Source: JBHIBR01 sp046759145 [NCBI: Nitrospinota bacterium] (GTDB lineage: Bacteria > UBA8248). Taken from it: 10,259 nt of DNA. The position numbers and the translations under genes are program-made. Location of the stretch: positions 1-10,259 of the forward strand of contig JBHIBR010000037.1 in the NCBI GenBank assembly GCA_046759145.1, read 5' to 3'. Below are positions 3 to 7,273 of this stretch, piece by piece; within the stretch, counting starts at the first letter, position 1, and each line of letters opens with the position of its first letter. The notes beneath the pieces are model-generated. The model saw nothing but the letters and a program-made list of their open reading frames with translations. It was not told the origin of the DNA and searched no databases.

Positions 3-2696
3 GCGCGGCTCTACGACGGGGCCGACCTCCTGCGCGAGGCGGCTCGCCGCGCGCCATCCTCCCCGACCCTGCGCGAGGCATCCCTCTTCTGCCTCTACGG
101 TTTCTACGACATGAACCCGCTCCAGCGCGAGCTCGCGAGAGCGTGTCTCCAGGCGGTTCCCCGGGCGGCGGTCTTCTTCCCGTGGGCGGTAGCGGAGACG
201 GGAGCACCTCCCGGGGACCAGGAGGATCACCCCGCCCTCGCCTTCGCCCAGCCCCTCAAGGAGTGGCTCCTTGGCCTCGGCCTCGAGCCCGTCCCTCTCC
301 CCGAGGGACCGGAGGATGGCCAGCACGCCTTCCGGGAGGTGCGCCGAAGGCTTTTCCGCCGAAGGGGCCGGGATGGGGTCTCCGACCTCGGCGAGCTTTC
401 CCTCGCCATCGTGGCCGCCCCCGGGGAAGCGCGGGAGGCCTACGAACTGGGGCGCGAGATCTGGCGGCTCGCGGAGGAGGAAGGAGTGCGCTTCGAGGAG
501 ATGGCCGTCCTGCTCCGAACGGAGGAACCCTACGGCAGGCTCCTCCGCGAGACCCTGGAGTTCCTGGAGATACCCTATCGTTTTGCGGGCGGCCCACCCC
601 TCGCCGAGAGCCGGATGGCCCGCAGGTTTCGCCTCTTTCTCGAACTGGGGCCCCGCGGACTCCGCCGCAGGGATGTGCTTCGCTTCTTCGCCCTGGCCCC
701 TCCCGAAGGGGGCCCGGAGGTCGCCCCCTGGGAGGAGCTCACACGCGAGGCAGGCATCGTGGGAGGCGCCGAAGGGTGGGAGAAGGGGCTGCGACACCTG
801 AGCCAACGGCTCAGGGGAACCGGCGAGGAGGGGTCGCGCTCTGCGGGCTCCCGGCAAGGGGCCATCGAAGGGCTGCGCCGCCAGGCAGAAGCGCTCTTTC
901 AGGCCCTGGCCACGATCCCCGAGAGCGGCACCCCCGCCGCCCTCGCCCGAGCGGTCCTCGCCGCATTCAAGCCCTTCGAGCCGCCTGGCCCCACCCTCGA
1001 CGTCCTCGAAAAATGCCTGCGCGGATGGGAGCCGCTGGAGGTCCCGGAGCTTTCGCTGGAGGAATTCGCCGGCTGGGTGGGGAGGCTCCTGGAGAGGACG
1101 GCCGGAGCGGAGGGGGGGGCGGCATCCCGGGGCGGCGTCACCATCGCGCGTCTCATGGACGCGCGGGGCACGCGGTTTCGGGCCGTCCTCCTCCCCGGCC
1201 TCGGGGCGGGCCGCTTCCCCTCCCTGGGGCGACAGGACCCGCTCCTCCCCGACGAGGCCAGGAGGGCCATGGACGGAGACTCCGAGCACGGTCTCCCCCT
1301 CCTCCCCCTTAAGGGGGAGCGCTGGGCGGAGGAGCGGCTCCTCTTCTGGCTCGCCCTGGGGGCGGCGAGGGAGCACCTGGTGCTGAGCTATCCCTCCCGC
1401 GACCCGCTCCAGGGGCGCGAGAAACTCCCCTCCCTCTTCCTCCTCCACCTGGCCTCCGCCCTGGGCGCCCCGATGACGGAGGAGGGCCTTCAGAAGCTCC
1501 CCGGCTTTCGGCGCGCATCCGCGGCTCTGGAGCGTTGCCCGCGCGTCCAGCCTGCCTCTCTCCTGGAGCACGACCAGCGGCTCATCCAGGCGGCACTGGA
1601 GGGGAGAGAGGACGTCGAGGGAGCCCTCGCTCCCCTCCTGGAGGAGAGCGCCACTCTGCGGCGCGCCTTCGAGGCGGAAAGTGCCCGCTGGGCGTCTGGC
1701 TGCTTCACCCGCTTCGACGGCCTCCTGGCGGGCTCCCGGGCGCGAGAGTCCCTCGCGGGGTGGCTCGGCCTCCCTCCCCATCGAGTGTCGCCCACCGCCC
1801 TCGAGACCTACTGGACCTGTCCCTTCCAGTATTTCCTCGAGCGCGTGTTGGAGCTGGAGGCCTCCGAGGAGCCGGAGGAGCTCTACTCCCTCCCTTCCGA
1901 CGAGCTGGGCCGCCTCTACCACCGGGCACTCAGGATCTTCTTCGAGCGATGCGCCCGGGATGTTGGGCTGCTTCCGCTCGCGCAAGGAAAGCGAGAGACC
2001 CTGCTGAGCCTCCTCCGCGAGGCGGCGGAGGCGGCATTCCGGGAGCAGGAAGAGGTCGGTCTCACGGGCTATCCGCTCGTGTGGGAGAGGACCCGGCAGG
2101 AGGTTTGGGAAGCGCTTCGCTCTCTCCTCGACCGGGAGATCGAATCGGCGGAGGACTTCATCCCGTTCGCCTTCGAGGAGGAGATCGAGGTGGAGCTTCC
2201 GGAGGCGGGCCTCCTCCTGCGGGGGCGCATTGACCGGCTGGAGCGGAGCTCCGATGGGAAGCGACTCCGTCTCCTCGATTACAAGACGGGCCGCCACCGA
2301 GGGGAGAAGGATGACTCACTCGCTTGGACCAAGGACCGCAAGACTCCCTCGCTCCAGGCTCCCCTCTACCTGCTGGCGGCGAAGCTCTGCTACCCCGAGG
2401 CGGAGGTGGAAGGAGCCATCCTCCACTTCTTCACCCGGAAGGGTGAGGGGAAGAAGGTCTCTTTCTCCGCACGGGCGCTTCAAGAGAAGCGGCCGCTCCT
2501 CCTCCGTTTTGCACAGGCAGCAGCCGACGGATGGCGGGAGGGGAGGTTCTTCCCCCATCCCCTCGAGGGGGCGTGCGCGCGCTGTGACTTCAAGGCCGTC
2601 TGCGGCGCGGCCATCGAGGAGGGCGTGGCGCGGAAGAGAGACTCCGACCCTTACCTCCGAGCCTTCCTGAAACTCCGGGATGAGGCCAATGGCTGA
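3..2696 (+). CDS. addB: AddB-like helicase/exonuclease subunit with C-terminal PD-(D/E)XK Fe-S nuclease, 5' end outside window
   Basis: This is the nuclease/scaffold subunit of an AddAB-type double-strand-break resection complex, acting in the cytoplasm with the AddA protein encoded next. The frame is open from position 3 through the ATG at 111. The residues before that Met (LYGFYD, then MNPLQ) match the AddB 'GFYDL-Q' segment, so 111 is not the true start and the N-terminus is missing. Numbering from Met111: residues about 95-165 resemble the UvrD-type C-terminal helicase fold (EEPYGRLLRETLEFLEIPYR), and about 340-375 carry the 'VLLPGLGAGRFPSL' helicase-like segment. The nuclease domain has GRIDR (D708) and LLDYKTG (D723, K725). 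Four Fe-S cysteines are present: C570 in YWTCPFQYF, then C822, C825 and C831 in the CX2CX5C tail. That arrangement is diagnostic of AddB-type nucleases (family knowledge). The gene overlaps addA. The helicase site of AddB, if present, lies off the window, so its integrity cannot be judged. Confidence 0.88.
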   Translation, partial: ARLYDGADLLREAARRAPSSPTLREASLFCLYGFYDMNPLQRELARACLQAVPRAAVFFPWAVAETGAPPGDQEDHPALAFAQPLKEWLLGLGLEPVPLPEGPEDGQHAFREVRRRLFRRRGRDGVSDLGELSLAIVAAPGEAREAYELGREIWRLAEEEGVRFEEMAVLLRTEEPYGRLLRETLEFLEIPYRFAGGPPLAESRMARRFRLFLELGPRGLRRRDVLRFFALAPPEGGPEVAPWEELTREAGIVGGAEGWEKGLRHLSQRLRGTGEEGSRSAGSRQGAIEGLRRQAEALFQALATIPESGTPAALARAVLAAFKPFEPPGPTLDVLEKCLRGWEPLEVPELSLEEFAGWVGRLLERTAGAEGGAASRGGVTIARLMDARGTRFRAVLLPGLGAGRFPSLGRQDPLLPDEARRAMDGDSEHGLPLLPLKGERWAEERLLFWLALGAAREHLVLSYPSRDPLQGREKLPSLFLLHLASALGAPMTEEGLQKLPGFRRASAALERCPRVQPASLLEHDQRLIQAALEGREDVEGALAPLLEESATLRRAFEAESARWASGCFTRFDGLLAGSRARESLAGWLGLPPHRVSPTALETYWTCPFQYFLERVLELEASEEPEELYSLPSDELGRLYHRALRIFFERCARDVGLLPLAQGKRETLLSLLREAAEAAFREQEEVGLTGYPLVWERTRQEVWEALRSLLDREIESAEDFIPFAFEEEIEVELPEAGLLLRGRIDRLERSSDGKRLRLLDYKTGRHRGEKDDSLAWTKDRKTPSLQAPLYLLAAKLCYPEAEVEGAILHFFTRKGEGKKVSFSARALQEKRPLLLRFAQAAADGWREGRFFPHPLEGACARCDFKAVCGAAIEEGVARKRDSDPYLRAFLKLRDEANG
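1302..1319. repeat. 18-bp perfect palindrome CTCCCCCTTAAGGGGGAG inside addB
   Basis: The 18 bases are exactly self-complementary around the centre at 1310/1311, and a further CTCCCC run lies just upstream. The segment encodes LPLLPLKGE in the addB-like frame, directly before the conserved WAEERLLF stretch. The duplicated LPL suggests that a few residues were added by the repeat. I recall similar CCCCCTTAAGGGGG palindromes as dispersed repeats in other GC-rich genomes, but copy number here cannot be seen from one window. It might also form a hairpin in the mRNA. Confidence 0.6.
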
Positions 2697-5600
2697 GGGA
2701 GCTCCCCTGGACGCGGCCATCCGCGAGAGGGCCCGCACCTTGCGGGGCGAGAACCTTCTGGTCGAGGCGGGCGCGGGGACGGGCAAGACCACCCTCCTGG
2801 TGGACCGCCTCCTCGACCTCCTGGAGAAGGGGGACGCGGAGCTCTCCGACCTCGTTGTCATCACCTTCACCGAGAAGGCCGCCGCCGAGCTGGCCGCGCG
2901 CATTCGGTCGAAGGTGGAACGGAGACTGGAAGAGAGGGAGAGCGGGGGTGAGGGCGCTTCTGAGGTGGCGGAGCGCATGCGGTGTGCCCTGGAGGACCTC
3001 GAGCGTACCCCTGCCCAGACCATCCACGGCTTCTGCGCTTCACTCCTCCGGGAGTTCCCCCTGGAGGCGGGGGTTAGCCCTTCTTTCGATGTGCTGGATG
3101 AGCTCGCCCAGGGGGAGCTCATCGAGGAGGCCTGGGCGGGGTGGCTCAGCCGGGCGCTCTCGGAGGAGAGAGCCGCGCTGCGGGACGCGCTCGCGCTGGG
3201 CCTGGGGCCGGATAGGTGGAAGGTAGTCCGGGACTGGATGGTGGAGCATCGGGACTTGCTCAAAAACCTTCCGGACCCGATGGGGGGGGCGCGGGAGGAG
3301 GTGCTGGCGGGCCTGGGCGCGTTTGGGGCCGAGCTCGCCGAGCTTTTCGGCGAGTGCACCCGGCCCGAAGAAGATAAGCTTGCAGCCCGGTTCCAGGAAT
3401 TCAGAGATTGGGCGGGCGGTCTCCGCGGGCGGGACGAACTCGACCTTCTGCGCGCCTTCGAGGACCCTTACAAATTCAACCGCAGAGCCGGCTCCCAAAA
3501 GAACTGGTCTTCCAAAGAGGCCCTCGAAGCGGCAAGAGCGGCCCTGAGGCGTTTCCAGGAAGAACTCCTCCCCGCCTGGAGAGCCAGGCTCGGCCACAAC
3601 TTCGCCGCCCGCCTCCTGGCCGAGCTGCGGGGGTATGTCGAGGAATATGAGCGCCTCAAGGCCGAGCGCGGTCTTCTGGATTTCCTGGACCTGCTGCTGA
3701 GGGCGCGGGACCTGCTGCGGGATCACCCCGAGGTGCGGGGCATCCTCCAGGGCCGCTTCCGCCACCTGCTCGTGGACGAGTTCCAGGACACCGACCCCCT
3801 CCAGGTCGAGGTGGTCTTCTTCCTCGCCGAACGCGCGCCCCGCGCCCGGCAGTGGGAGGAAGTGGAGCTTGCCCCCGGGAAGCTCTTCCTCGTGGGGGAC
3901 CCCAAGCAATCCATCTACCGCTTCCGCCGGGCGGACATCGAGATGTACGAGAGGGCGAAGGAACGGCTTGGCCCGCGCGGCTCCCTCCTCCCCATCCAGG
4001 TGAACTTCCGCTCCGTCCCGGGCCTGCTGGAATGGGTGAACGCGCTCTTCGAGAGGCTCATCCAAAAACCTCCCGACGGGGCCTACCAGCCCGACTACAC
4101 ACCCCTCCTCCCCTGGCGGGCGGGAGAGGGGCCTCGGGTCTTCTGGCTTCCCGAGTGCGACTCCCTTCCGCCCGAGGCCAAGGTGGAAGAACGCTGCCGG
4201 AAAGAGGCCGAGGCAATCGCTTCCCTCATCTTCACCCTCACCGACCCGGAGAGCGGCCTGAGCATCGAGGGAGAGGATGGCTCCCCGCGGGCTCCTCGCT
4301 ACGACGACTTCGGTGTCCTTTTCCGCAAGGGCACCCATCTGCGCCTCTATGAGGAGGCGCTCAGGGCGGCGGGCATCCCCTTCCGGGTGGAGGGAAGCCG
4401 CCAGTTCTACCAGCGCCAGGAGGTCAAAGCGCTGCTGGCCGCCCTTCGGGCGGTCGAGAACCCGCGGGACCGGATCTCCCTCGCAGCGACCCTTCGCTCT
4501 CCCCTCTTCGGCTTCAGCGACGAGGAGGTCTTCCTCCTCGCGCGGGCGGGCTGGGAAGCGTCGGCGGCGGGCCTGCCGGAGCTCGAAGAGGCGGTTTCCC
4601 TCATCGAGGGCCTTCACCGCAAGCGGGAGGAGGTGAGTTTTCGCCGCCTTGTGAGCGAGCTCCTGGCGGCCACGCGCGCCCCCGAGCTCTTTCTCTGCAA
4701 ACCCGACGGCGAGGGGCGCCTCGCCAACCTCCTCAAGGTGCTGGACCTGGCCGAGGCCGCCGCGGGGACGGCCATGGCCTCCTTCGGCTCTTTCGTGCGC
4801 TGGCTCTCCGGGCTGGAGCGCACGGCCGAGAGCTACGAGGGGGCTCCCCGGATGGGAGAGGCCCCCGCGGACGAGGGAGCCCTCAACTGCGTCCACCTCC
4901 TCACCATCCACAAGGCCAAGGGCCTCGAGTTCCCCATCGTGATCCTGGCCGACCTGGCGAGCCCCCTGGGGAGGGGGGGGAGGGGGGCGAGGGTTGGCTC
5001 CGACCCCCTCCTCTGCGACCGCCGGGAGGGGAGAGTGGAGTGCTCCCTGGGGCCGCTCGAGACTGCGGGATTTGCACCCCTCAGGGAACTGGACGGGAGA
5101 AGGGAGCTGGAGGAAGAAAAGCGCCTCTTCTACGTGGCCGCCACCAGGGCCCGGGATTACCTCTTCCTCCCGCCCGTCCAGGGGGAGCCCGAGGGCTACT
5201 ACCGGTTCCTGGCGGCGGGAGCGCCGGGGGAAGGTGAGCTCGGCCGCCGGGCGGAGCCTTTCCCCATCCCCCTCCGCACTCCCCCGTGGGAGGACCGCCC
5301 CTTCCGGGCGGCTGAGCGCCTCTTCCTTCCCGGTGGGAAGGGAGAGGAGCAGACGCGCCGCTCAAGGGCGGCTTTCGAGGCACGGAGAAGTCGGGCGGCG
5401 AGAGAAGCGAGCGAGTCCCATCCCCTCGTGGCCGCGAGCGAGCTGGAAATGCCAGGAACGCTCGTCGGCAAGCCCTCCGTGGCGGGCGGGGGAGCCCCGG
5501 GCGGGGGCGCCCCGGGCGGGGGCGCCCCCTTCGGGGAGCTCGTTCATTTCCTCCTGGCCAGGGTGGAACGGCTCGCAGTACCCCTTCCGGCCGAGTTCGC

Positions 5601-6090
5601 CGTCCTGGCTGAGGGCAAAGCGCGGGCCTTGGGCCTGGGCGCTCAAGAGGCCGCTCGCGCCCTCGGGCTCGTTGAGGCTGCCCTCTCCATGCCCACCCTC
5701 GAGCGGGCGCGCCGCGCCCCCGCCTGTCCGCAGGAGCTCCCCTTCGTGGCGGAGGTGGAGGGCGTCTCGCTCCAGGGACAGGTGGACCTCCTCTTCGAAG
5801 AGGAAGACGCCCTCGTTGTCGTGGACTTCAAGACGGACGCCGTGGCGGAAGAGGAGGTGGACGCGCGCCTCGCGGCCTACCGCCTGCAGGGTGGGGCCTA
5901 CGCTCTGGGTCTGGAGGCCGCGACGGGGAAGCGCGTGGGGGAGGTGCGCTTCCTCTTCCTGGCGCCCCGGGTGGAGCGCCGCCTTCCGCTCGATGAGCCT
6001 TTGAAGGGGGAAGTGCGGGAGGCTTTGCGCAGCGCTCCGCACTCAGGGTGCCCGCCCGTGATCGGCCCACCGAACGGAGGAAGCCTCTGA
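2680..6090 (+). CDS. addA: AddA-like ATP-dependent helicase/nuclease (UvrD/RecB superfamily)
   Basis: This is the motor and second nuclease subunit of an AddAB-type complex; it unwinds and degrades DNA ends before RecA loading. SF1 helicase motifs occur in order: Walker A GAGTGKT (31-37), motif Ia VVITFTEKAAAEL (about 59-71), TIHGFC (114-119), Walker B LLVDEFQDTD (D366, E367), motif III GDPKQSIYRFRRAD (406-419), motif V LTIHKAKGLEF (741-751) and motif VI FYVAATRAR (817-825). The C-terminal RecB-type nuclease follows a Gly-rich linker: GELVH (H956), QVDLL (D1036) and VVDFKTD (D1049, K1051). All catalytic positions are present. The length of 1136 aa is close to the family's usual 1150-1250. The ATG at 2680 overlaps the end of addB by 17 bp. 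An in-frame ATG at 2689, nine bases downstream, would give an 8-bp overlap and is equally plausible. Either way, translational coupling with addB is likely. RecB is the alternative, but the preceding AddB-type partner and the absence of RecC favour AddA. Confidence 0.92.
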   Translation: MRPMAEGAPLDAAIRERARTLRGENLLVEAGAGTGKTTLLVDRLLDLLEKGDAELSDLVVITFTEKAAAELAARIRSKVERRLEERESGGEGASEVAERMRCALEDLERTPAQTIHGFCASLLREFPLEAGVSPSFDVLDELAQGELIEEAWAGWLSRALSEERAALRDALALGLGPDRWKVVRDWMVEHRDLLKNLPDPMGGAREEVLAGLGAFGAELAELFGECTRPEEDKLAARFQEFRDWAGGLRGRDELDLLRAFEDPYKFNRRAGSQKNWSSKEALEAARAALRRFQEELLPAWRARLGHNFAARLLAELRGYVEEYERLKAERGLLDFLDLLLRARDLLRDHPEVRGILQGRFRHLLVDEFQDTDPLQVEVVFFLAERAPRARQWEEVELAPGKLFLVGDPKQSIYRFRRADIEMYERAKERLGPRGSLLPIQVNFRSVPGLLEWVNALFERLIQKPPDGAYQPDYTPLLPWRAGEGPRVFWLPECDSLPPEAKVEERCRKEAEAIASLIFTLTDPESGLSIEGEDGSPRAPRYDDFGVLFRKGTHLRLYEEALRAAGIPFRVEGSRQFYQRQEVKALLAALRAVENPRDRISLAATLRSPLFGFSDEEVFLLARAGWEASAAGLPELEEAVSLIEGLHRKREEVSFRRLVSELLAATRAPELFLCKPDGEGRLANLLKVLDLAEAAAGTAMASFGSFVRWLSGLERTAESYEGAPRMGEAPADEGALNCVHLLTIHKAKGLEFPIVILADLASPLGRGGRGARVGSDPLLCDRREGRVECSLGPLETAGFAPLRELDGRRELEEEKRLFYVAATRARDYLFLPPVQGEPEGYYRFLAAGAPGEGELGRRAEPFPIPLRTPPWEDRPFRAAERLFLPGGKGEEQTRRSRAAFEARRSRAAREASESHPLVAASELEMPGTLVGKPSVAGGGAPGGGAPGGGAPFGELVHFLLARVERLAVPLPAEFAVLAEGKARALGLGAQEAARALGLVEAALSMPTLERARRAPACPQELPFVAEVEGVSLQGQVDLLFEEEDALVVVDFKTDAVAEEEVDARLAAYRLQGGAYALGLEAATGKRVGEVRFLFLAPRVERRLPLDEPLKGEVREALRSAPHSGCPPVIGPPNGGSL
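5485..5529 (+). repeat. Three 15-bp in-frame tandem repeats encoding (GGGAP)x3
   Basis: Three consecutive 15-base units, GGC GGG GGM GCC CC(G/C), encode GGGAP three times (AddA residues 936-950). They sit in the linker between the helicase core and the nuclease motif with H956. Units 2 and 3 differ only at the last base; unit 1 also differs at one third position. Each unit contains or nearly contains the palindrome GGGGCGCCCC. The repeat probably lengthens a flexible hinge and is a likely site of copy-number change by slippage. Confidence 0.85.
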
Positions 6091-6140
6091 CGCTCCCGCT
6101 CGGTGGACCGACGCTCGGTGGACCGACGTTCGGTGGACCG
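6063..6140. repeat. Inverted repeat spanning the addA stop codon; possible weak bidirectional terminator
   Basis: Bases 6063-6075 (CGGCCCACCGAAC), inside the last addA codons, are complementary at 12 of 13 positions to 6128-6140 in the third tandem unit. They pair less well (11 of 13) with the two earlier units, giving alternative stems with shorter loops. The structure sits between convergent genes, where a bidirectional terminator would be expected. There is no T-run on either side, so intrinsic termination is only a guess. Confidence 0.4.
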
Positions 6141-6142: not shown

Positions 6143-7273
6143 TCAGGGCGTGAGGCGCAGGGTGGGGGGAGGGGAGCCGATGTTTTTCAGGAAGCTGTAC
6201 GGGCGGTTCGGCCGAAATCCCGCCCGGGCCACCTTCCCCGCCGATGTGAGCTCCACCACGAGCACGAAGTGGCGCCTGCGCGGGTCCACCACGAAGCGGA
6301 GGTCCAGGTACTCCACCCGGTGACGGCCTCCCTCCTCCCGGTAGCGGACGAGCGGGTAGCGGGCGAACCAGCGGTAGAGGCGCACCAGGTCCTCCTCTTC
6401 CGCCCGCCGCACGAAGGGGTTCACGGGGGCGTTCTCAAGCCGCTCGACCTGCGGGGGCGGCCCGGAAGGGTTCACCTGGGCCGCCCGGAGGTAGCCCCCC
6501 TCGATGCGGGCCAGGCCGCGCCAGGGCACGTAGCCGGGGGGCGTGAGGCCGAGCCAGCGGAAGAGAGCCCCCGGGGCGGGCAAGACAGACTCTTCGAAGG
6601 TAGCAATCCCGCTCGCCGCGGTCGCCCGCCGCAGCTGGGCGAGCGCCCTCCCGTGCTCCAGGCCCGAGGCCCCCACGTAGAGCGCGGCGGCGACGAGGCC
6701 ACCCCAGGCGAGAGGCCGGCCCCACCGGGGGAAGGCCAACCCAGCGAGCAAGGGGAGGAGAAAGCAGAGGGTGAGAGAGATGTCGATGATGAAGACCCAG
6801 TCCAAGGCGAAGCGCCTGGCGATGAAGGGGAGGAAGGCCTGGGTCCCGTAGGAGGTGGGAAGGTCCAGCAGGATGTGGAGGACAACCCCCAGGTAGGCCA
6901 CCAGGTAGAGGCTCCCGAAGGGAACCCGTCGGGCGAAAAGCCGCACTATCCCCGCCACCACCAGCGCCTCCCCGAGGCCCCCGAAGAAGGAATGGGTGAT
7001 GCCCCGGTGGTAGGCCATCACGGCGGGGAGGCCCCCCCAGAAGCGGACCACGTTATCCGCATCGGGCACAATCGCCCCGAGGAGGGCAGCCCAGGCCAGG
7101 GGGCCACGCGGCCCCGGGCGAAAACCCCATTCCCTTAAGCCCCCCTTCCCAACCGGGGCTCGAACGAAGTGGGCGCTTTCGCTCCGGCCCGGTGGCCGGG
7201 GGCCGCGTGGCCCCCGGGCGCTGAGGGCGCTCCCCAGGATGAGGCCGGAGACCACGTGGGTGATCGGGTCCAC
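6143..7273 (-). CDS. Membrane-bound metal-dependent hydrolase, DUF457/YdjM-like
   Basis: This is a 376-residue integral membrane protein of the family annotated as metal-dependent hydrolases (YdjM/DUF457, COG1988-type); the substrate is unknown. The family signatures are visible: MDPITHVVSG at the N-terminus (H6), PDADN (D71, D73), YHRGITHS (H89, H94), LHILLDLPTSYGTQ (H133, D137) and FALDWVFIIDI (D158, D164). Hydrophobic segments lie at about 60-70, 97-113, 122-137, 159-180 and 185-205. After them comes a soluble C-terminal tail of about 150 residues ending PPPTLRLTP. The start is GTG at 7273, chosen because MDPITH is the conserved N-terminus; GAGGG lies 7 nt upstream (7281-7285 on the + strand). 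Residues 20-59, rich in Arg, Gly and Pro, look like an insertion relative to the family and coincide with an inverted-repeat-bounded DNA segment. The gene is convergent with addA and transcribed alone. Confidence 0.85.
   Translation of the reverse strand: MDPITHVVSGLILGSALSARGPRGPRPPGRSESAHFVRAPVGKGGLREWGFRPGPRGPLAWAALLGAIVPDADNVVRFWGGLPAVMAYHRGITHSFFGGLGEALVVAGIVRLFARRVPFGSLYLVAYLGVVLHILLDLPTSYGTQAFLPFIARRFALDWVFIIDISLTLCFLLPLLAGLAFPRWGRPLAWGGLVAAALYVGASGLEHGRALAQLRRATAASGIATFEESVLPAPGALFRWLGLTPPGYVPWRGLARIEGGYLRAAQVNPSGPPPQVERLENAPVNPFVRRAEEEDLVRLYRWFARYPLVRYREEGGRHRVEYLDLRFVVDPRRRHFVLVVELTSAGKVARAGFRPNRPYSFLKNIGSPPPTLRLTP
7099..7215. repeat. 117-bp in-frame segment bounded by exact 17-bp inverted repeats (putative palindromic element inside a gene)
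   Basis: GGGGGCCACGCGGCCCC at 7099-7115 is the exact reverse complement of 7199-7215. The segment is 117 bp, a multiple of three, and keeps the host membrane-hydrolase frame open. It encodes residues about 20-59, with RGPRGPRP at one end and RPGPRGPL at the other. Inside it an AGCCCC/GGGGCT stem (7138-7143 with 7155-7160) could form a central hairpin. It falls between the conserved MDPITH and PDADN motifs, where I recall a shorter spacer in relatives. No target-site duplication is evident to me. It may be a non-autonomous palindromic element comparable in style to RPE-type insertions, or a locally grown GC-rich linker. Confidence 0.5.

What the first reader, a model, noticed from the sequence alone, without database searches (positions are those of the whole stretch)
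7099..7215. In-frame palindromic insertion inside a DUF457/YdjM-like membrane hydrolase
Exact 17-bp inverted repeats bound a 117-bp stretch (39 codons) that stays open in the host frame and encodes a basic Gly/Pro-rich loop between two conserved metal-site motifs. Small palindromic elements that insert in frame into genes are known from Rickettsia (RPE). I know of no described equivalent in this kind of genome, so this could be an undescribed family of protein-embedded elements. That reading is inference: the bounded repeat is seen, mobility is not.
Basis: partly seen in the sequence, partly recalled or inferred. Interest (0 to 1): 0.62.

Follow-up and report, generated by a model that had tools for sequence, protein, structure and literature searches.

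The report
In-frame palindromic insert in YdjM gene
A bacterial membrane-protein gene carries a short hairpin-forming stretch of DNA that its relatives lack and that keeps the reading frame open; in-frame palindromes of this general kind are already known, and no second copy of this one was found.

Summary
Exact 17-bp inverted arms (7099-7115, 7199-7215) lie inside an intact YdjM (PF04307) gene; 0 of 1000 dinucleotide shuffles gave an exact inverted pair that long. Homologues lack the segment: start-to-PD.D distance is 35-44 residues in 32 of 33 loci (36 in 23; L027 is 47 by eye), against 69 here. The net gain is thus 33 codons (99 bp), not 39. Each arm is itself a near-palindrome (GPRGP in protein), so the arms also form a direct repeat spaced exactly 99 bp. 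The interior has atypical third codon positions, folds modestly better than shuffles, and lies between the first two predicted helices.

Mobility is not shown. The window's genome is not held; no copy appeared in plasmids, phages, viral contigs, 395 genomes of one phylum or 299 of another, all probably distant. In-frame palindromes are documented outside Rickettsia (PMC3733652). GTAG/CGTC tags are absent and RPE1 does not match. Best reading: a MITE/REP-dimer-like palindromic insertion, translated and tolerated; a local template-switch event is the main rival.

The parts
6143..7273 (-). YdjM-family (PF04307) membrane protein gene, host of the insert, 376 aa, GTG start
7199..7215 (-). Arm nearest the gene start; near-palindrome; the codons at 7199-7213 encode the first GPRGP (residues 21-25)
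7116..7198 (-). Interior, 83 bp, imperfect hairpin, atypical third codon positions
7099..7115 (-). Second arm, exact reverse complement of the first; the codons at 7100-7114 encode the second GPRGP (residues 54-58)
7099..7118 (.). One copy of the 20-nt near-direct repeat (partner 7198-7217, 85%, start-to-start 99 bp); 99 bp is the net gain against homologues
7256..7273 (-). MDPITH, conserved start motif upstream of the insert
7055..7066 (-). PDAD, conserved motif downstream of the insert (residues 70-73)

Best explanation
A small palindromic DNA element inserted in frame into a YdjM-family gene, of the general MITE / REP-dimer / RPE kind. Its anatomy is two near-palindromic GC-rich arms in inverted orientation around an imperfect-hairpin interior. 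The net gain is 99 bp (33 codons), consistent with insertion at, or duplication of, one arm-like palindrome that already encoded GPRGP. It is most likely translated as an extra basic, Gly/Pro-rich loop between the first two helices, at the end of that helical hairpin away from the MD..TH and PD.D motifs, and so is tolerated. Shown: the arms, the net insertion relative to homologues, the open frame, the atypical composition, the retention of conserved residues. Inferred: that it arrived by transposition of a dispersed element, that it is translated, and that it has no function of its own.
For: Arms beyond chance (0 of 1000 shuffles reach 17 bp). The region folds far better than shuffles: DNA z -5.02, sense RNA z -6.03 at -103.1 kcal/mol, 0 of 200 shuffles as good in each. 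Homologues lack it. Its codons are unlike the gene's: 9 of 27 end in A/T against 34 of 350, Fisher p 0.0014; against all five genes p 0.008; 50 of 2895 27-codon stretches elsewhere are as A/T-ending; one TTA codon, against 1 in 417 Leu codons in the rest of the five genes. Coding GPRGP twice independently gives an exact inverse match of 17 bp or more with probability 0.003. Intragenic palindromes that encode amino acids are established (PMC3733652).
Against: No second copy in anything searched: plasmids and phages (best E 0.2), viral contigs (0; nine 16-mers, none matching beyond about 20 nt), 395 genomes (short fragments; those looked at lie in unrelated sequence), 299 genomes (0). These genomes appear distant (best Memo identity 50%), so this is weak. 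The interior alone is only modestly palindromic (9 of 200 DNA shuffles fold as well). No GTAG/CGTC tag and no flanking TA duplication. Removing all 117 bp would leave a spacing of 30, shorter than in any homologue measured, so the element's true ends are uncertain. The loop tolerates other length changes (+3, +8 and about +11 in L030, L031, L027), so growth by other means is possible.
Confidence: 0.5

Rival explanations
1. A local rearrangement, not a mobile element: replication fork template switching at a GC-rich quasi-palindrome (one GPRGP-coding arm) copied the arm in inverted form together with filler DNA, and selection kept a product of 3n length.
For: Arms are near-palindromes, the usual substrate. 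The net gain equals exactly one arm-to-arm unit, 99 bp. No other copies were found. The window also has two GC-rich 15-bp tandem arrays of about three copies, so short-repeat instability exists here.
Against: The 83-bp interior has no source in the 10-kb window (best match other than itself E 0.089) and has a different composition.
Confidence: 0.3
2. A lineage-specific protein loop that grew as coding sequence; the peptide GPRGP occurs twice, and high-GC codons make that peptide nearly self-complementary, so the inverted repeat is a by-product.
For: GPRGP occurs at residues 21-25 and 54-58; the loop varies in length among homologues.
Against: An exact inverse match of 17 bp or more arises in 0.3% of simulated independent codings (an earlier run with one mis-framed piece gave 0.2%). 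Interior codon composition is atypical.
Confidence: 0.1
3. An assembly artefact at a strong hairpin in a metagenome-type contig.
For: Very stable hairpin; no genome is held for the window, and reads could not be examined.
Against: The frame is kept (an accident would do so about one time in three) and the conserved motifs on both sides are intact.
Confidence: 0.07

Closest known systems
Rickettsia palindromic elements (RPE)
   Same: Palindromic, of similar size (about 150 bp), inserted in frame in genes, with an ORF through the element (PMC10969869, passages)
   Different: No match to the RPE1 protein model (model present in the library); no copy family shown; window is 70% GC; no CGTC tag
GTAG / CGTC REP dimers inside ORFs
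   Same: Palindromic units in opposite orientation, sometimes inside ORFs, dimers or groups encoding 20-30 aa and clusters 43-82 aa (PMC3733652, section 15)
   Different: No GTAG or CGTC or their complements in 7080-7235; arms 83 bp apart; repetition and transposase association untested
Intragenic ERIC / RU and other MITEs
   Same: Small non-autonomous sequences found within genes, some with ORFs or in-frame fusions (PMC10969869, passages; PMC2759123, start of abstract in a listing)
   Different: No flanking TA duplication visible; no match in Rfam at gathering thresholds or in the BLAST collections
Palindromic amphipathic repeat coding sequence (PMC2996958, title and start of abstract in listings)
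   Same: A palindromic repeat that is itself coding sequence
   Different: By its abstract a tandem intragenic repeat family; the window's insert is not tandem; sequences were not compared

Membership tests
Rickettsia palindromic element (RPE1) | Encoded peptide matches the RPE1 model (TIGR01045) | tested here: not met
   Host protein and five of the six insert frames (one cut at its stop) scanned against NCBIfam up to E 5: no RPE family listed. The model exists in the library (where it matched 0 of 1 genome and none of 14 controls, so there was no positive control). Other RPE models were not checked for by name.
Rickettsia palindromic element (RPE1) | In-frame insertion in a gene whose homologues lack it | tested here: met
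Rickettsia palindromic element (RPE1) | Multiple copies in the genome | not testable with these tools
   Own genome not held
REP (GTAG or CGTC superfamilies) | Terminal GTAG or CGTC tag | tested here: not met
   Neither tag nor its complement in 7080-7235. Of the degenerate forms looked for, GYAG occurs at 7086 and GAGG (complement of CCTC) at 7082 and 7223, all outside the arms. Definition from PMC3733652 (passages).
REP (GTAG or CGTC superfamilies) | Short palindromic units, often as dimers in opposite orientation | tested here: met
   Two near-palindromic arms in inverted orientation
REP (GTAG or CGTC superfamilies) | Repeated in the genome; for GTAG, RAYT transposase | not testable with these tools
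   Own genome not held; none of the five window proteins scanned is a transposase
MITE in general | Terminal inverted repeats | tested here: met
   17/17 bp exact
MITE in general | Target-site duplication | tested here: inconclusive
   A near-direct 20-nt repeat, 85%, comes from the palindromic arms and cannot be told apart from the inverted repeats themselves
MITE in general | Dispersed copies | tested here: inconclusive
   None found in plasmids, phages, viral contigs or 395 + 299 probably distant genomes; own genome not held

The most novel reading that the evidence does not exclude
A dispersed element that survives inside genes because the ribosome can skip it: its strong mRNA hairpin is flanked by matching GPRGP codons exactly 33 codons apart, which could serve as take-off and landing sites, giving a protein of normal length. 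That would be a mobile bypassing-type element in a bacterial chromosome. Nothing here tests translation.
Probability: 0.03. Interest if true: 0.8.

Novelty: new member of a known kind. Interest (0 to 1): 0.32.

Why it matters
If further copies exist, this would extend translated palindromic insertions to another high-GC lineage and give a clean case, with intact conserved motifs and a precisely measurable net gain, for asking how such DNA is tolerated inside proteins. As a single copy it is a small curiosity.

Tried and rejected
Copy searches without result. Viral contigs: searches had 0 matches; one search had nine 16-mers, none matching beyond about 20 nt. Plasmids and phages: weak fragments only (best E 0.2). 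Insert peptide in plasmids: no match. Rfam: 0 matches at gathering thresholds.

Genome DNA search, first version: 126 of 395 genomes gave a hit at E 0.1 or less (best 1.9e-4, per genome). The listed pieces span about 17-51 bp and lie mostly in the GC-rich arm; at most two candidates per genome were scored and the list was cut. Of the eight that became loci, the three exact 22-bp matches (L042, L044, L045) lie in near-identical surrounding sequence inside long open frames, that is, one gene in three related genomes; L043 looks like an RNase P RNA gene (recognised from memory); none has the arm-interior-arm arrangement. I repeated the search with 66 bp of the interior: 3 of 395 at E 0.01 or less, 22-27 bp each, not extending, and 0 of 299. 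The tool notes for that an empty answer without a positive control shows nothing.

Placing the organism. AddA against plasmids: 564 records, all under 60% identity, none covering 80%. The one genome-contig scan gave three distant homologues. Around the first of them, Memo identity reached 50% at best and AddA 39-44% in the five best matches. I did not reach the window's lineage.

Viral-contig searches for relatives of the host protein and of the aldolase found none. Structure prediction with four sequences was poor (mean pLDDT 48.1); no fold search was run on it.

Corrected on checking: the codon simulation included one out-of-frame piece of the YdjM gene (result 0.0022); the corrected run gives 0.003.

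Rejected: terminator (no T run after the hairpin, by eye); GTAG/CGTC REP; RPE1.

Full report
WHAT IS THERE. The window's minus-strand ORF 6143-7273 (376 aa, GTG start) belongs to PF04307 YdjM (E 6.2e-30). Inside it, 7099-7115 and 7199-7215 are exact 17-bp reverse complements with 83 bp between them. No other exact inverted pair of 13 bp or more with a spacer of 0-150 bp exists in the window. In 1000 dinucleotide shuffles the longest was 16 bp (2 of 1000), and 0 reached 17. The 136-nt region 7090-7225 folds at z -5.02 as DNA and z -6.03 as sense-strand RNA, with 0 of 200 shuffles as good in each case. The interior alone is less striking: DNA z -1.64 (9 of 200 shuffles as good), sense RNA z -2.59 (2 of 200), other-strand RNA z -2.20 (2 of 200).

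IT IS AN INSERTION, BUT OF 33 CODONS. I took three homologous loci from a genome scan and 30 from a search of 247 genomes of one phylum, of which 54 had a match (the remaining matches were not given as loci). In these 33 loci the distance from the start residue to PD.D was measured by script in 32: 35 in three, 36 in twenty-three, 37 in four, 39 and 44 in one each. The script failed on L027, where I count 47 by eye from its printed sequence. L001 and L014 have the same N-terminal sequence and L010 and L011 differ little, so the rows are not all independent. In the window the value is 69. In a MAFFT alignment of the window with 19 of the 33 homologues, the net gap opposite this region is 33 columns in 11 of 19 rows, 32 in four, 34 in two, 30 and 25 in one each. 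M1, D2, H6, P70, D71, D73, H89 and R90 are among the 20 invariant columns.

WHY 33 AND NOT 39. Each arm is a near-palindrome, so the arms also match in direct orientation (7099-7118 and 7198-7217, 20 nt, 85%, start-to-start 99 bp), and both encode GPRGP. Taking away one 99-bp unit gives spacing 36, the mode of the homologues. Taking away the whole 117 bp would give 30, shorter than any of the 32 measured. Either one arm was already in the gene, or six codons were lost at insertion. The inverse match is exact (17 of 17) while the direct match has three mismatches in 20, which favours an inverted origin for the second arm. Coding GPRGP twice independently with the window's codon usage gives an exact inverse match of 17 bp or more with probability 0.003 (one search gave 0.0022 with one mis-framed piece).

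FOREIGN LOOK. Of 27 interior codons, 9 end in A or T, against 34 of 350 in the rest of the gene (Fisher p 0.0014) and 417 of 3050 in the five genes together without the interior (p 0.008). Of 2895 sliding 27-codon stretches elsewhere, 50 are as A/T-ending, so this is suggestive rather than extreme. Apart from itself, the interior's best match in the window has E 0.089.

WHERE IN THE PROTEIN. An AlphaFold2 model from four sequences is poor (mean pLDDT 48.1). It has coil from about residue 20 to 57, between helices 3-19 and 58-71, which agrees with hydropathy. Since MD..TH begins the first helix and PD.D ends the second, the insert should lie at the far end of that hairpin (inference). The conserved start motif is upstream of the insert, so a downstream start that avoids the insert would lose a strictly conserved part of the protein (inference).

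IS IT A DISPERSED ELEMENT? Not shown. No genome is held for the window. Searched without finding a copy: plasmids (peptide), phages, viral contigs, 395 genomes of the phylum of the L001 genome, a record titled Desulfobacteraceae, and 299 genomes of the phylum of the L003 genome, titled Desulfitobacteriaceae. One search gave short hits in 126 of 395 genomes. The eight examined lie in unrelated sequence: three are one gene in related genomes, and one looks like RNase P RNA (the identification is from memory). In the first phylum the best Memo identity is 50%; distance to the second was not measured, though neither of the two non-Desulfobacterota genomes tested had a Memo match. Lineage-specific repeats would not be expected there, so the misses are weak evidence against mobility.

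WHAT IT RESEMBLES. In-frame palindromic insertions are known. PMC10969869 (passages read) describes RPEs and says in-frame fusions by ORFs in intragenic MITEs are not unusual. PMC3733652 (passages; section 15) describes GTAG- and CGTC-tagged palindromic repeats inside ORFs in several bacteria, with dimers or groups encoding 20-30 aa and clusters 43-82 aa. PMC2759123 (start of abstract in a listing) covers enterobacterial small mobile sequences found inside genes. By anatomy the window's element is like a REP dimer or RPE. By membership, the GTAG/CGTC tags are absent and RPE1 does not match (model present, without a positive control). I saw no paper on this particular element in the listings of five library searches, which is not proof that none exists.

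VERDICT. A local template-switch origin remains a serious rival (0.3), and ribosomal skipping is a bold reading that nothing here tests (0.03).

Noticed in passing
window 5483-5528: 15-bp GC-rich tandem repeat (3.1 copies, 96% matches) inside the AddA-like helicase/nuclease gene, encoding GGGAP three times; the four homologues L035-L038 have a different short linker there.
   Followed up: partly
window 6097-6140: A second 15-bp tandem repeat (2.9 copies, unit CGCTCGGTGGACCGA) in the short gap between the converging AddA-like and YdjM genes.
   Followed up: no
window 111-2696 and 2680-6090: AddB-like (PDDEXK_1) and AddA-like (UvrD plus PDDEXK_1) genes overlap by 17 bp, a probable recombination-repair operon.
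   Followed up: no
L020, L026, L030, L031 (YdjM homologues): These four of the 19 aligned homologues share an insertion of about 40 residues before the [LF]P.P..P..W region, absent from the window's protein and the other 15.
   Followed up: no
L043 around 1501-1538: A 42-nt, 81% match to the insert falls at the 5' part of what looks like an RNase P RNA gene (recognised from memory); probably chance similarity of GC-rich hairpins with a GAAA loop.
   Followed up: partly
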